Source: a virus. From it: a DNA stretch of 31,304 nt. The position numbers and the translations under genes are program-made. Where the stretch lies: positions 1 through 31,304 of the IMG/VR virus record IMGVR_UViG_3300048015_000334; one strand, given 5' to 3'. A model generated the notes under the pieces. That model searched no databases and was not told the origin of the DNA. It saw only the letters and a list, made by a program, of their open reading frames with translations. Positions 17,878-22,662 of the stretch are shown here, piece by piece. Within the stretch, counting starts at the first letter, position 1. Every line of letters begins with the position of its first letter.

Positions 17878-18579
17878 CTAGCTGCTGGCGTTGGAGAGGT
17901 TGGCGCTGGCACGGGCCAGATAGCCGCGCGCGGCGGTGGACTGCGCAAGCTGCCCGGCAGCGGCGACGGTGCCGGCGAAATCGCCGGCGGAGCCCGCCGT
18001 CGTGAGCTGGGCTTGCGTGGTGGTGATCGTCTGGTCGAGCGTGGAGAGGGCGGAGCCGATCGCTCCGACCGCGGCGGTGTAGCCGCTGCCGCCGGGTGTC
18101 GTGGCGTCCGGCGCGGCCAGCGCCGCCTGCGGGGCCGACACGTCGAGACCGAAGGTGGACGCCGCGTCGAGATCGGCCGCAGCGGCGACGCCGATCGACG
18201 TGGCGGCCGCGGTCAGCGATGCCACGGGATCGCTCAGCACCGTGCAGGTCAGGCGGTAGGGGATCCACCACGGGCTGCGATATTCCGCCTCGAACTTCGC
18301 GATGATGACGACGTAGAAGAAACTGTCCCAGGTTAGCTCTAGCGGCAGTCCGGCGACGCGCAATGCGTCCAGCAGGCGGGCGCGATCGGCGGCATCGCTG
18401 CCCATGAAGCTGCCGGACCAGGTGAGGTCGGCGTCGTCGCGGCCGAGCGTGTCGATGACGCGGTCGCCGCCGGGCAGGCGATGCACGGCCAGGCGCTGGC
18501 CGCCGCCGAATGCCAGCCGTTCCGGGACCTCGAAGCCCTGGAACGCGACCGGGCCAAGCAGCAGGGCGATGCCGGACAT
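17878..18579 (-). CDS. Hub-associated tail protein, in the place of the DNA circularisation protein
   Basis: A 233-residue protein. FQGFEVPERLAFGGGQRLAV, HRLPGGDRVIDTLGRDDADL and TWSGSFMGSDAADRARLLDA form an N-terminal domain like those of phage tail proteins that follow the tape measure, including the N-terminal region of Mu-type DNA circularisation proteins. LELTWDSFFYVVIIAKFEAE and WWIPYRLTCTVLSDP fit the usual (S)F.V.V..F....R..W...Y.....V pattern. The C-terminal 100 residues are Ala/Ser/Thr-rich helix. At 233 residues it is about half the length of Mu gpN. Joined to the upstream gene by TGATG overlap. Role inferred from order. Confidence 0.6.
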   Translation of the reverse strand: MSGIALLLGPVAFQGFEVPERLAFGGGQRLAVHRLPGGDRVIDTLGRDDADLTWSGSFMGSDAADRARLLDALRVAGLPLELTWDSFFYVVIIAKFEAEYRSPWWIPYRLTCTVLSDPVASLTAAATSIGVAAAADLDAASTFGLDVSAPQAALAAPDATTPGGSGYTAAVGAIGSALSTLDQTITTTQAQLTTAGSAGDFAGTVAAAGQLAQSTAARGYLARASANLSNASS

Positions 18580-19721
18580 CAGGGCGAGACCGCGACGCCG
18601 GCCCAGGCCGGGGACAGCCGCGGATCGAAGCCGGTGGCGCCGGCATTCGGCCGGGCCGCCTCGCGATCGAGGTGGTCGGAGAGCCAGCGGCCGACGCGCA
18701 TGCCGTCGAGATACACGTCTCCACCAATGCGGCTGCCGGCCTGCGCCAGGCTGGGCGGCGGGGCCGCGGAAGGCAGGGTGCCGGCCGGATAGGGCGCGAC
18801 GGGCAGCGCTGCCGCTGCCGGTGCGAACGGCCTTGGCGCCGCCGGCTGCGGCTGCGGTGGCGGTGCGTGCGGCGGATACACCGGCGCCGCCATGCGGGGC
18901 TGCTGCAGGGCCGCGCGAACGGGCGCCTGCGGAGACGTGGCTTGCGGCGCTGCGGCCGGCTGGCGCGGGGCTGCAGGCGCCGCAAGCGGCACCGGCCGCG
19001 CGACCGGGGGCGCGGGCGCGGCGGGCGCGGCCTGCGCCGGGATGACCAACGCCGGCGCCGCCCGAACCGATGTTGCGCGCGGCGACGCGGCAGGCGGCAG
19101 GACGACCGCAACGTCAGCCGTCGGGGCCGAAGCGAGCTCACCCTGCGCGGCCGCGGCGACAGGCGCCCGCGGGGGCGCAACCGTCACCTGTGGCGGCAGC
19201 GGGGCGACCGCGGGCGGGGACGACGATGGCTGGGGCGGCACGGCCGACACGGACGCCGGTTCGGCGGGCCCGGCCGGTGCCGCGGACGGCCGGCGGGCGG
19301 CCTCCGGTGCGACCGGCGCCGGCTTGTCCGACGGCTGCTGCGGCGGCGGCATTGGCGCGGCGGGCTCGCGCACCGGCTGGGGCATCTGCGGCGCGGTGGC
19401 TGCCACTTTTGCAGGTCCGACGACGAGTTGCGGCACGGCCGGTTGCGGCGCTGCCGGCGGCGGCTCGGGCGCAGCGTCGCTGGGGTCGGCTGACGCGGAT
19501 GCCGGGCGTGGGGGCACGGCGTCGACCGGCGATGCGACCGCGGACGACGGCGCCGGTGGCGCGATGACCAGGGCGGCCGCACGGCGCAGTCGCTCCAGCC
19601 CGAGCTCGCTGGCCGCGACGGCGCGGTCCAGGCTGGCCAGGTCCCGCCGGATGGCTTCCACGCCGGCGGCGACGCCGTTGTCCAGCGCGAGCGTGATGCC
19701 GATGGTGTATGCGTCGATCAT
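18579..19721 (-). CDS. Pro/Ala-rich protein in the tape-measure position
   Basis: A 380-residue protein. The N-terminus (YTIGITLALDNGVAAGVEAI, RRDLASLDRAVAASELGLER) resembles the opening of phage tape-measure proteins. Residues about 55-325 are very rich in Ala and Pro, with no regular helix, no membrane segment and no enzyme motif. The C-terminal 45 residues (IGGDVYLDGMRVGRWLSDHL, TGFDPRLSPAW) are a compact non-repetitive motif. It sits exactly where the tape measure is found (after the G/GT chaperone, before hub, gpX and gpD) and no other candidate exists in the window. Upstream ATGA and downstream TGATG overlaps support the ends. The call 'tape measure' is inference from position and N-terminus; the middle is unlike any usual one. 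Confidence 0.6.
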   Translation of the reverse strand: MIDAYTIGITLALDNGVAAGVEAIRRDLASLDRAVAASELGLERLRRAAALVIAPPAPSSAVASPVDAVPPRPASASADPSDAAPEPPPAAPQPAVPQLVVGPAKVAATAPQMPQPVREPAAPMPPPQQPSDKPAPVAPEAARRPSAAPAGPAEPASVSAVPPQPSSSPPAVAPLPPQVTVAPPRAPVAAAAQGELASAPTADVAVVLPPAASPRATSVRAAPALVIPAQAAPAAPAPPVARPVPLAAPAAPRQPAAAPQATSPQAPVRAALQQPRMAAPVYPPHAPPPQPQPAAPRPFAPAAAALPVAPYPAGTLPSAAPPPSLAQAGSRIGGDVYLDGMRVGRWLSDHLDREAARPNAGATGFDPRLSPAWAGVAVSP

Positions 19722-20092
19722 CGGCCGGCCAGTCCGCGGAACAGGTCGCCGAACGAGGCGGCAATCTCGTCCGCCACCAGCACGGCGAGCGAGGCGCCGG
19801 CCGGGCCGAAGAACGGCCGCGGCGGAATCGTGGCCGTGCCAAGCTCCTGATCGACGGCGACCGGGCTGGTGCTGCCGACCACCGCGGTGGCGTTGTCGAA
19901 GGTGGCGGAGATGCTGTCGCGCAGCGTGCCGGTGCGCAGCCAGGGGGCCTCGTGCGGCCCGCCGGGCGGCGTGGACAGGGCTTGCTGCACGGTCTGCTGC
20001 ATGCGATCCGCGGCGGCGTGCACGGCCGCCTGCTGCGTTTCCATCACCGGCAGCTCGGCGAGGCGGGCGATGAGAGTGGCGATCGCGCTCAT
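19718..20092 (-). CDS. HK97-gp10-like tail/neck protein
   Basis: A 124-residue protein. A helical N-terminus (MSAIATLIARLAELPVMETQ, QAAVHAAADRMQQTVQQALS) is followed by WLRTGTLRDSI, AVVGSTSPVAVDQELGT and IPPRPFFGPAG, the LR.GTLRDSI...VGS..P.A..QE.GT..IPPRPF pattern of HK97-gp10-like and tail-completion proteins. The ATG at 20092 overlaps the stop of the frameshift extension of the chaperone (ATGA), which decides the start; an in-frame ATG at 20107 lacks such support. Such proteins normally join head and tail; here the gene lies between chaperone and tape-measure position, somewhat late in the order. Confidence 0.72.
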   Translation of the reverse strand: MSAIATLIARLAELPVMETQQAAVHAAADRMQQTVQQALSTPPGGPHEAPWLRTGTLRDSISATFDNATAVVGSTSPVAVDQELGTATIPPRPFFGPAGASLAVLVADEIAASFGDLFRGLAGR

Positions 20093-20624
20093 GGCGGCGA
20101 ATTCCATTGATGGCTGTGCCAGTCGAACAGCCGGCCTTCCAGGGTGCCGGTCGCGACCACCCAGGCGAGCCGTTCTTCGGGCGAAAGGCTGAAGGCGACG
20201 TCGAACGGCACCCCGTTCCGGACCAGGTAGAGACAGTCGACGAGATCGGGGTGCCGGCTCAGTTTCCCGCGACGTCCGCGAGCTGCTCGCGCGAGGGGAC
20301 CACCTCCGGCGGCAGTGCCAGCGCCGCTGCGGCGATGCCGGCGTCGCCGAGGCGCGAGACCAGCGATTCGATCTGCTGCTCGTTGGTCGGCGACGGTACC
20401 GGTACGCCGTCGATCGCCACGACGGAATAGGCCAGCATGGCCATGCCGAGGTAGTGCGTGTTCTGCGCGAGCTGCGCACCGACCGCCTTGAACAGGCGCA
20501 GCTTGTCGAGCGAGCCGAGGCGGCGCAGCGTCAGCTCCCGCCCCTCCTCGTCAAACACCGTCATGCCCGCGGCGGCGGCGGCGACGATGCGCGCGGAGGG
20601 CGTGTCGAGCATGCGGGGATCCAT
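20089..20624 (-). CDS. Tail assembly chaperone GT fusion made by -1 ribosomal frameshift
   Basis: The predicted product reads the chaperone G frame to the AAC codon at 20264-20262, slips back one base at GGGAAAC, and continues from CTG (20262-20260) for 57 more codons to a TGA at 20089-20091; total 178 residues. The extension reads LSRHPDLVDCLYLVRNGVPF, then DVAFSLSPEERLAWVVATGT, then LEGRLFDWHSHQWNSPP. It has no start codon or ribosome site of its own except an internal GTG in mid-domain, yet is dense with typical protein sequence. It ends with an ATGA overlap to the next gene. G and GT proteins bind the tape measure during assembly; a -1 shift here is the rule in long-tailed phages (lambda GGGAAAG). 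Strong inference; the frameshift rate is unknown. Confidence 0.85.
20259..20624 (-). CDS. Tail assembly chaperone G
   Basis: A 121-residue protein located directly after the tube gene, as tail chaperones usually are. VFDEEGRELTLRRLGSLDKL looks like the short beta-strand and 'RxL..LD.LRL' opening of such proteins; HYLGMAMLAYSVVAIDGVPV and PSPTNEQQIESLVSRLGDAG match the common pattern of a helix, I.G...P.P....I..L...LGD. The ATG at 20624 overlaps the tube stop (TGATG); a GTG one codon upstream is also possible. The gene ends with slippery sequence and stop (GCG GGA AAC TGA). It is the unshifted product of the G/GT pair. Confidence 0.85.
   Translation of the reverse strand: MDPRMLDTPSARIVAAAAAGMTVFDEEGRELTLRRLGSLDKLRLFKAVGAQLAQNTHYLGMAMLAYSVVAIDGVPVPSPTNEQQIESLVSRLGDAGIAAAALALPPEVVPSREQLADVAGN
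20262..20268 (-). promoter_or_regulatory. Slippery heptamer GGGAAAC for -1 frameshifting
   Basis: On the minus strand the zero-frame codons read G GGA AAC, then TGA. This fits X XXY YYZ exactly with XXX = GGG, YYY = AAA and Z = C. The stop codon directly after the heptamer would stall the ribosome with the slippery codons in the P and A sites. The -1 frame is open for 57 codons and ends at the ATGA overlap of the next gene. Confidence 0.85.
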
Positions 20625-21052
20625 CACACACGGGTCCGCTGCGAGGCCATGAAGTCCAGCTTCTGCTTGACGCTGGCATCGCCTTTCCAGGCGCCGGAGC
20701 TGGACAGCTTGAAGACCACGCCGTCGAACTGGTAGGTCGAGGTGGAGCCGTCGTTCTCCGCGACATACTGGTAGAGCGTGCCGGTTGGCAGGCTGCCGGA
20801 ATTGTACCAGCCGGATTCCGCCGCGGCGATGAAGTCGTCGGCAGCGCTGGATCCGCGCTCGATGTCGAAGCTGCCTTCCCAGCCGCTCGGCAGGTGCGCC
20901 GCCATATTGACGCCGTCGAGGCGGTTGACCTTGATCTGCTGCGTCGTCTGTCGCGCCTCGAACCCTGTGACATGGGTCAGATCGACACGGCCGGCCGGAC
21001 CGATGACGACGAGCTGACAGTCCCGGCCGACCGAGAATGTATTACCGGACAA
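20624..21052 (-). CDS. Tail tube protein
   Basis: A 142-residue protein directly after the sheath gene, the normal place of the tube gene. The pattern GRDCQLVVIGPAGRVDLTHV, TGFEARQTTQQIKVNRLDGV and LPSGWEGSFDIERGSSAADD is that of contractile tail tube proteins: a beta-barrel made of strands around a 'W.G.F..ER' turn. YQYVAENDGSTSTYQFDGVV and WKGDASVKQKLDFMASQ finish the barrel. The product polymerises inside the sheath and conducts the DNA. The stop overlaps the chaperone ATG by one base. Confidence 0.85.
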   Translation of the reverse strand: MSGNTFSVGRDCQLVVIGPAGRVDLTHVTGFEARQTTQQIKVNRLDGVNMAAHLPSGWEGSFDIERGSSAADDFIAAAESGWYNSGSLPTGTLYQYVAENDGSTSTYQFDGVVFKLSSSGAWKGDASVKQKLDFMASQRTRV

Positions 21053-21090: not shown

Positions 21091-22662
21091 TCAGGCCGTC
21101 TGGCCGGCGGGCAGGGTCTGGCGCTGGATAGAGACGGTCTGGCCGCCTTCGACATTGACGATGAACTTCTCGTTGATCGCCTGATACTGAATCTGGCAGT
21201 CGGCCTGCACGTAGCCGAGGCTGGTGCGCGACTGCGGGTTGTTGGAGACGTCGCAGATCACGCTGAATGGCGCGGCGCCGGTGGTGCTGCCGAGCTGCCC
21301 CTGCTGCAGCATGTTCTGCAGAAAGCTCAGCAGGGTCGCGCGGATGCGCTGGAACAGTCCGGTGCTGATGACCTGGCCGACGTATTCGCCCATGCCGGCG
21401 GCCAGCGTGGCGGCGATGTAGTTGGTCAGGCGCGTGTAGTTGTCGCCGTTGGTGGCGGCGTCGGAGGAGCTGTTGTGGCCGCCGCGCACGCCCCAGAAGC
21501 TGCCGCCCGGCTGCGGGTTGGCGATCACGTCGATGCCGGCCTGCAGCAGCGTCGTCAGTTCGGCCGCGGAATAGCTGCTGCTCTGGCCGGAGCCGGGGGA
21601 GCCGGATTTCTGGCTGCCGACCACGCCATACAGCGGCTTGTTCAGGCTGGACTGCTCGGGCGAGAGATTGCCGAGCCGTCCGGCCGTGAATCCCTGCGGC
21701 GAGACCAGGCGGACGAGCGCATTCACCTGGTCGTTCCACCAGATCCAGTCGCCGAACATCAGCTTGGCGGCATAGCTGTCGAGCCCTGATGTCGCCTTGG
21801 TGCTGACGGCGTTGTTCAGGCTGTCACCGGACGGGCCGGTGAGGATCATGTACAGCCCCTCCGACAGGCCGAAGCCGGCCTGCACCGTCCATTCCGTTGA
21901 GTCGTCGGCGTCGGCGAGCACGCCGATCGAACAGCCCTGGCCGCGCAGCGCATACATGCCCTGGCGCGGCAGCGTATCCTGGCCGACCAGCGTCGCCGCG
22001 GTGACGTTGCCGGCGCCGTCGCTGCCGCCGGAGAACGGCTGGTTCGTCAGCACGGCCGGCGGTGTCGCCGTCGATGCGCCGAGCGCCGCGACGGCGAGTT
22101 GCGACGGACCGCGCAGCGGCCCGATGCCATGGTTGACCGCGTTCACCAGGTTCTGCCACATTGCGGCGCCGGTTCCGATGATGTTGTCGAACACCTCCGG
22201 GGTCTTGCCCGGCAGCGCCAGCGTCAGCCGCCAGCTATTGGGCACGGAGCCGGCCATGAGGTTGGCGACGATGCTGTTACCGAGCGAACCGCTGTAGAGC
22301 GCCGTCAACTGCGCCGGGAATGCCGTGTTGGCGGGCAGAAGCTGCAACTGCGCCGCCGTGTCGGTGCCGTCGCTGACACGCACGCACCGAAATGCCTGTG
22401 CCCCCTGCTGGACCGCGGTGGCCACCGGGGTGCCCAGATCGTACTTGCGATTGACGATCGGACCGAAGTTGACGGCGTAGTCGGCCATCGTGCCGACCAC
22501 GACGGGCAGGCCGACGGCGCCCCAGGACGCCGTGCCGACCATGCCGATGACGTTGGTGGGAACGCCGTTCAGCACCAGGTTCTGCGGCGGCACGATCTGC
22601 ACATACAGATCCGGCACCACGAGAGCCGTGGTATTGATGCTGCCTTGCTGGACGATCGGCAT
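21091..22662 (-). CDS. Tail sheath protein
   Basis: A 523-residue protein. VPDLYVQIVPPQNLVLNGVP, TNVIGMVGTASWGAVGLPVV is the common sheath opening. VSDGTDTAAQLQLL and FQRIRATLLSFLQNMLQQGQ match the central and C-terminal parts, with the C-terminal domain SVICDVSNNPQSRTSLGYVQ and QIQYQAINEKFIVNVEGGQT forming the arm that links neighbouring subunits. The sheath contracts at infection and drives the tube into the cell; its presence makes this a myovirus. The gene follows a 49-codon ORF by three bases and ends 38 bases before the tube gene. Length is normal. Confidence 0.93.
   Translation of the reverse strand: MPIVQQGSINTTALVVPDLYVQIVPPQNLVLNGVPTNVIGMVGTASWGAVGLPVVVGTMADYAVNFGPIVNRKYDLGTPVATAVQQGAQAFRCVRVSDGTDTAAQLQLLPANTAFPAQLTALYSGSLGNSIVANLMAGSVPNSWRLTLALPGKTPEVFDNIIGTGAAMWQNLVNAVNHGIGPLRGPSQLAVAALGASTATPPAVLTNQPFSGGSDGAGNVTAATLVGQDTLPRQGMYALRGQGCSIGVLADADDSTEWTVQAGFGLSEGLYMILTGPSGDSLNNAVSTKATSGLDSYAAKLMFGDWIWWNDQVNALVRLVSPQGFTAGRLGNLSPEQSSLNKPLYGVVGSQKSGSPGSGQSSSYSAAELTTLLQAGIDVIANPQPGGSFWGVRGGHNSSSDAATNGDNYTRLTNYIAATLAAGMGEYVGQVISTGLFQRIRATLLSFLQNMLQQGQLGSTTGAAPFSVICDVSNNPQSRTSLGYVQADCQIQYQAINEKFIVNVEGGQTVSIQRQTLPAGQTA

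What the first reader, a model, noticed from the sequence alone, without database searches (positions are those of the whole stretch)
20089..20268. Textbook -1 frameshift (GGGAAAC TGA) creating a tail-chaperone GT fusion with an ATG-less extension
The chaperone G gene ends G GGA AAC TGA on the minus strand, an exact X XXY YYZ heptamer with the zero-frame stop immediately after. The -1 frame is open for 57 codons, has protein-like sequence (DLVDCLYLVRNGVPF, SPEERLAWVVATGTLEG) and ends exactly in an ATGA overlap with the next gene. It has no usable start of its own, so standard gene calling would leave a 170-base hole. G/GT frameshifting is known in lambda (GGGAAAG) and many long-tailed phages; what is new here is this instance and the stop-adjacent arrangement.
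Basis: partly seen in the sequence, partly recalled or inferred. Interest (0 to 1): 0.75.

Follow-up and report, generated by a model that had tools for sequence, protein, structure and literature searches.

The report
Conserved tail-chaperone frameshift signal with hairpin
A phage tail-assembly gene carries a built-in signal that makes some ribosomes slip back one base just before the stop codon and add a 57-residue tail; this is a known trick of long-tailed phages, but the same signal plus a hairpin nobody seems to have described is kept almost letter for letter in hundreds of phages and prophages of acetic-acid-type bacteria.

Summary
On the minus strand a 121-aa gene ends GCG GGA AAC TGA. 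The -1 frame continues 57 codons and ends in ATGA with the next gene. It is not chance: 100 of 100 unique relatives found by G-protein homology alone keep XXXAAAZ, and 95 have the stop directly after it. XXX is GGG or AAA, never mixed. Its 3' arm codons GGG GTG show no synonymous change in 146 nonredundant sequences. In a second nonredundant set of 147 sites, 97.5% of stem positions pair, against at most 76% under synonymous resampling, with compensatory changes. The best explanation is programmed -1 ribosomal frameshifting making a lambda G/GT-like tail-assembly chaperone pair in a contractile-tailed phage. Expression was not tested. The claimed novelty fails: Burkholderia phage KL1 already has GGGAAAC directly before TGA in its tail-chaperone gene. 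What is new is this family, common in one bacterial order (160 of 397 genomes), unnamed in PHROGs and misannotated in the only two isolated phages that carry it, and its conserved compact cassette. It is a new member of a known kind.

The parts
20259..20624 (-). G-like gene, 121 aa, ATG at 20624 overlapping the upstream gene's stop; putative tail-assembly chaperone (PHROG 20383, function unknown)
   Evidence: AlphaFold model pLDDT 91, best structural matches 3klu (YqbN) Z 5.4 and 2ob9 (HK97 tail assembly chaperone) Z 5.0
20262..20268 (-). slippery heptamer G_GGA_AAC
   Evidence: conserved as GGGAAAC/AAAAAAC (one GGGAAAT) in 100/100 and 89/91 unconditioned relatives
20259..20261 (-). zero-frame stop TGA directly 3' of the heptamer
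   Evidence: adjacent in 95/100 relatives
20247..20255 (-). 5' arm of stem GGCACCCCG (10th pair C20256-G20206 in this window)
20207..20215 (-). 3' arm of stem CGGGGTGCC; codons GGG GTG without synonymous variation in 146 nonredundant sequences
20089..20262 (-). -1 frame extension (T-like domain), 57 codons plus stop, LSRHPDLVDCLYLVRNGVPF...; no conserved start of its own
   Evidence: AlphaFold model of the extension alone pLDDT 92
19718..20092 (-). next gene, tail completion/Neck1 or HK97 gp10-like, ATGA overlap with the extension
20624..21052 (-). upstream gene, 142 aa, in the tail-tube position (PHROG 12993, function unknown)
   Evidence: tube role inferred from position after the sheath
21091..22662 (-). 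tail sheath, 523 aa
   Evidence: PHROG 23 tail sheath E 8.5e-44
18579..19721 (-). ORF of 380 aa in the tape-measure position; no family match
   Evidence: role inferred from position only

Best explanation
The site is a programmed -1 ribosomal frameshift. Most ribosomes read G_GGA_AAC and stop at the adjacent UGA, giving the 121-residue G-like protein. A minority slip one base back on the heptamer, with GGA re-pairing to GGG and AAC to AAA. Slippage is helped by a 9-10 bp stem that starts 12 nt after the first base of the GGA codon, at the ribosome's mRNA entry. The slipped ribosomes skip the stop and add 57 residues (junction ...DVAGN-LSRHPD...), giving a 178-residue GT-like fusion. By analogy with lambda gpG/gpGT, the G part would bind the tape measure and the extension would recruit tube subunits during assembly of this contractile tail. 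Shown here: the sequence anatomy; conservation of heptamer and stem, the stem acting on RNA rather than on protein; protein-level constraint on the extension; gene order. Inferred: that slippage happens, its rate, and the chaperone function.
For: (1) Heptamer kept in 100/100 loci found without using it, and in 89/91 more distant ones. XXX switches as a block GGG<->AAA, about 7 changes on a FastTree tree (starred branches force at least 2), with no mixed form among 210 confirmed extension sites; one of these is a 1-nt deletion, L176. This is what two-tRNA re-pairing needs. (2) Extension codons 17-18 (GGG GTG) have zero synonymous variation in 146 nonredundant sequences, expected pair difference 0.69 and 0.63. 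Pro5 is only CCC/CCT. Other extension codons outside the signal are mostly near neutral, ratios about 0.8-1.2, apart from Leu7 at 0.46 and Leu13 at 0.61. (3) 97.5% of stem cells pair in 147 nonredundant sites, against a null mean of 73% (max 76%) under synonymous resampling and at most 50% in slid registers. Most single changes lead to G-U. Double changes C-G to U-A occur in L379, L381, L388. In L391 the stem moves one base while the protein changes RHP to RAP. (4) Stem start 12 nt from the P-site codon matches the 11-12 nt at which dnaX and HIV hairpins act (PMC7282821). (5) Extension residues before codon 18 are conserved at protein level with mostly free codons (L7, D9, L11). (6) Gene order: sheath, tube position, G/T, tail completion, tape-measure position. 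The G model's top two structural matches are phage proteins, one the HK97 tail assembly chaperone.
Against: No expression data. No curated tail-chaperone family matches G by sequence; only weak PHROG 508/344 hits for 2 and 1 of 16 members. Structural Z of about 5 is modest. A_AAA_AAC is reported as much less shift-prone than A_AAA_AAG in E. coli (PMC5009743), so efficiency in the real host is unknown. The tape-measure and tube assignments are positional.
Confidence: 0.94

Rival explanations
1. The extension is a separate small gene, translated by reinitiation or coupling from an internal start, with no frameshift.
For: phiKX1 is annotated that way, CDS from an internal ATG at extension codon 7. 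Extension codon 18 is GTG in all 146 nonredundant sequences, with purine-rich sequence upstream.
Against: No start codon is conserved upstream of codon 18; 56 of 147 sites have no ATG/GTG/TTG in extension codons 1-16. Residues 6-15 are conserved as protein with mostly free synonymous codons and form the first helix of a confident model, so translation begins before them. A start at codon 18 would not explain the matching 5' arm, the compensatory changes or the block-wise GGG/AAA heptamer.
Confidence: 0.03
2. Transcriptional slippage on the A run inserts or deletes bases in the mRNA, and ordinary translation then makes the fusion.
For: AAAAAAC sites hold six A, a length at which RNA polymerase slippage is conceivable (general knowledge).
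Against: Most sites are GGGAAAC with only three A (179 of 211). Both forms share the X XXY YYZ phase and the downstream stem at fixed spacing, which fits ribosomes.
Confidence: 0.02
3. Stop-codon readthrough at UGA makes a longer product in the zero frame.
For: The zero frame after the stop is open for a long stretch in this window.
Against: 60 of 147 relatives have a second zero-frame stop after only 5 codons. The conserved protein lies in the -1 frame.
Confidence: 0.005

Closest known systems
Lambda gpG/gpGT and the wider tail-assembly-chaperone -1 frameshift of long-tailed phages (Levin 1993; Xu 2004; reviewed in PMC5009743)
   Same: Small gene between major tail gene and tape measure with a slippery heptamer near its end; the -1 extension yields a low-level fusion protein.
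   Different: Lambda uses GGGAAAG and, by my own knowledge, its stop lies further downstream; here AAC is the second codon in all but one confirmed intact site, the stop is usually adjacent, and a long-loop stem is conserved. G and T share no detectable sequence family with named chaperones.
Burkholderia phage KL1 gp18/gp19 (PMC3483164)
   Same: GCG GGA AAC TGA: identical heptamer with the stop directly after it, predicted stem-loop downstream, and one tail gene between GT and the tape measure.
   Different: Single-phage prediction without a conservation test; downstream sequence lacks the GGCACCCC/GGGGTGCC stem; siphophage with a longer extension.
Escherichia coli dnaX frameshift signal (PMC7282821)
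   Same: Slippery heptamer plus a 10-bp hairpin 11-12 nt after the P-site codon; a simple stem-loop rather than a proven pseudoknot.
   Different: AAAAAAG, 50-80% efficient; produces a truncated product; different gene.
Caulobacter phages phiCbK (AAAAAAC) and Colossus (GGGAAAC) (PMC3556154)
   Same: The same two heptamer types in alphaproteobacterial tail-chaperone genes.
   Different: Unrelated large siphophages; stop position and stem not examined here.

Membership tests
G/GT tail-assembly-chaperone programmed -1 frameshift | G ORF overlapped by a -1 ORF without its own conserved start | tested here: met
G/GT tail-assembly-chaperone programmed -1 frameshift | In-phase X XXY YYZ heptamer conserved among relatives | tested here: met
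   100/100 unconditioned loci, 89/91 more distant
G/GT tail-assembly-chaperone programmed -1 frameshift | Located between the major tail gene(s) and the tape measure gene | tested here: inconclusive
   Directly after sheath and tube-position gene and before a tail-completion gene; tube and tape measure assigned by position only
G/GT tail-assembly-chaperone programmed -1 frameshift | G protein is a tail assembly chaperone by sequence or fold | tested here: inconclusive
   No Pfam/NCBIfam hit naming a tail assembly chaperone; weak PHROG 508/344 hits; fold matches 3klu Z 5.4 and 2ob9 Z 5.0, Foldseek E 0.047
G/GT tail-assembly-chaperone programmed -1 frameshift | Fusion protein is made at a low fixed ratio and needed for tail assembly | not testable with these tools
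   Needs reporter assay, proteomics and mutants
Stem-loop-stimulated -1 frameshift signal (dnaX-like) | Conserved stem at 11-12 nt from the first base of the P-site codon | tested here: met
   12 nt spacing by sequence; pairing 97.5% vs null max 76%; spacing rule from PMC7282821
Stem-loop-stimulated -1 frameshift signal (dnaX-like) | Stem stimulates frameshifting in vivo | not testable with these tools
   Needs a reporter assay with stem mutants

The most novel reading that the evidence does not exclude
The adjacent UGA is itself a working part. The stem holds the ribosome with GGA/AAC in the E and P sites and UGA in the A site, slowing release factor 2, and slippage competes with termination, so the G:GT ratio would sense release-factor supply rather than being a fixed elongation-stage value.
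Probability: 0.2. Interest if true: 0.6.

Novelty: new member of a known kind. Interest (0 to 1): 0.42.

Why it matters
It gives a large natural alignment (about 300 sites) of one bacterial frameshift signal with its slippery site, stop and stem all under visible selection, useful for testing how stem spacing and an adjacent stop set frameshift rates. It assigns a likely function to two unnamed phage protein families (PHROG 20383 and its unannotated extension). It also explains a gene that annotation of the two isolated phages splits off as a separate hypothetical gene.

Tried and rejected
Separate-gene, readthrough and transcriptional-slippage readings were tested on relatives and rejected (see rivals). 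A pseudoknot between loop and downstream sequence: codons 21-46 show mostly normal synonymous diversity and the alignment fold gives only the single stem. An alternative long fold of the 3' arm with a downstream CGGCACC repeat appears only in the 132-nt fold of this window; conservation was not tested separately. Rfam: no match. Named chaperone families: Pfam and NCBIfam none. PDB by sequence: nothing relevant. The extension model has no meaningful PDB match. Alignments A2/A3 were too diverse for the locus search; closer ones worked. phiCbK was looked at for stop adjacency, but the fetched stretch did not contain the tail genes. Search of the paper library for this signal in acetic-acid-bacterium phages found none, and the phiKX1 paper does not mention frameshifting; the library lacks most subscription papers, including Xu 2004.

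Full report
What is there. On the minus strand a 121-residue gene (20624-20259) ends GCG GGA AAC TGA. The heptamer G_GGA_AAC is at 20268-20262 and the stop at 20261-20259. In the -1 frame the sequence runs on for 57 codons from CTG 20262 and stops at 20091-20089, sharing ATGA with the next gene. No ORF of 60 aa or more with a common start codon ends there. The neighbours, in order of transcription, are terminase, portal, major head protein, tail sheath, a gene in the tube position, this gene pair, a tail-completion/Neck1-like gene, an ORF in the tape-measure position, a protein with weak matches to the DNA-circularisation (Pfam DNA_circ_N) and Gpu-like tail families, and baseplate genes. This is a contractile-tailed phage or prophage.

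More than chance. About 0.26 stops directly preceded by a slippery-type heptamer are expected in this GC-rich (69%) window, and two occur, so one instance alone proves little. Relatives decide. Searches with the G protein alone in bacterial genome contigs and viral contigs gave 100 unique loci that reach the stop. All 100 carry an in-phase heptamer: GGGAAAC 90, AAAAAAC 9, GGGAAAT 1. The stop is directly adjacent in 95, 18 nt later in 4 and 3 nt later in 1. A profile search found the gene in 160 of 397 genomes of the order of Limobrevibacterium, the acetic-acid-bacterium order, but in only 2 of 385 genomes sampled across the class, both of which also appear in the order sample. Of 91 loci taken from that order (two of them from genomes already known to carry the gene), 89 have the heptamer. 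Of the other two, one keeps it behind an upstream indel and one has lost it. In the phage collection of 50,697 records only Komagataeibacter phages phiKX1 and phiKX2 have it, and phiKX1 reads AAAAAAC TGA.

Downstream lies GGCACCCCG ... CGGGGTGCC, an inverted repeat of 9 pairs (10 in this window) around a 31-nt loop. A DNA pattern holding only the heptamer end and the 5' arm returned 108 true sites in viral contigs, and all 108 had the 3' arm at the same distance. In 146 nonredundant sequences the two codons of the 3' arm, GGG GTG, show no synonymous variation at all, where pair differences of 0.69 and 0.63 are expected. Pro5 is always CCC or CCT. Most other extension codons vary as neutral expectation predicts, except those tied to the stop and Leu7 (0.46) and Leu13 (0.61). 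Over 147 nonredundant sites 97.5% of stem cells pair, compared with 73% on average and 76% at most when codons are resampled synonymously, and 50% or less in slid registers. Most single changes run to G-U. Compensatory C-G to U-A changes are seen in L379, L381 and L388, and in L391 the whole stem shifts by one base while the protein motif changes from RHP to RAP. Predicted folding of codons 2-21 is more stable than synonymous resamples, mean z -2.8 in 60 sequences. Selection therefore acts on the RNA stem and not only on the peptide.

How it most likely works. With GGA in the P site and AAC in the A site, the stem begins 12 nt after the first base of the GGA codon. Published work on dnaX and HIV hairpins finds that 11-12 nt puts the hairpin at the mRNA entry, where it hinders A-site binding and translocation (PMC7282821). 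Most ribosomes would terminate at UGA and give G; a few slip back and give G plus 57 residues. The block-wise alternation of XXX between GGG and AAA, with no mixed form in 210 confirmed extension sites (one of them, L176, has a 1-nt deletion in the heptamer) and at least two switches forced by well-supported tree branches (parsimony 7), is what simultaneous two-tRNA re-pairing requires. Conserved residues before codon 18 with mostly free synonymous codons show the extension is translated from close to the heptamer. The adjacent stop is usual but dispensable: the tree needs about 9 changes between adjacent and later stop. Whether it contributes to slippage is open.

Chaperone identity. The G model (pLDDT 91) has as its two best solved-structure matches the Bacillus protein YqbN (3klu, Z 5.4), which I know as a PBSX-type phage protein, and the HK97 tail assembly chaperone (2ob9, Z 5.0). 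Sequence families are silent or weak: PHROG 20383 has no function, and PHROG 508 and 344 (tail assembly chaperone) match 2 and 1 of 16 members at E 0.005 and 0.086. Gene order and the frameshift itself carry most of the weight.

Known or new. G/GT frameshifting is widespread in long-tailed phages (PMC5009743). GGGAAAC directly before TGA in a tail-chaperone gene was published for Burkholderia phage KL1 in 2012, also with an intervening gene before the tape measure (PMC3483164). New, as far as the searchable literature shows, are this protein family, its abundance in one bacterial order, and the conserved heptamer-stop-stem cassette. I file it as a new member of a known kind.

Limits. No expression data exist. 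Efficiency is unknown, and A_AAA_AAC is reported as weak in E. coli. Many loci are metagenome contigs, so single exceptions (L176, L348, L407, L142) may be errors or decayed copies. Nonredundancy was set at 88-90% nucleotide identity, which reduces but does not remove shared ancestry. The tree rests on 125 columns and many forks are unresolved.

Noticed in passing
L006 4327-4506 (phiKX1, LC644975.1 31738-31917): GenBank annotates the frameshift extension as a separate hypothetical gene from an internal ATG; phiKX2 likewise has two features under the match. Both look like annotation artefacts.
   Followed up: partly
L156, L163: MAG contigs labelled Solirubrobacterales and Acidimicrobiales carry the cassette, outside the usual order; binning error or transfer.
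   Followed up: no
L138, L139 (contig CAIYCW010000145.1): Two copies of the locus in opposite orientation on one contig, with the same match to the query.
   Followed up: no
window 18579-20258, minus strand: The zero frame after the G stop is open to the end of the tape-measure-position ORF; not conserved in relatives, likely a high-GC coincidence.
   Followed up: partly
window 18579-19721, minus strand: The ORF in the tape-measure position is only 380 aa (743 aa for the likely counterpart in phiKX1) and matches no family.
   Followed up: no
L348: One relative has lost the heptamer and most of the 5' arm but keeps GGGGTGCC, as if the site decayed recently.
   Followed up: partly
window about 3714: A second GGGTTTC-TGA occurs, not far from chance expectation for the window.
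   Followed up: no
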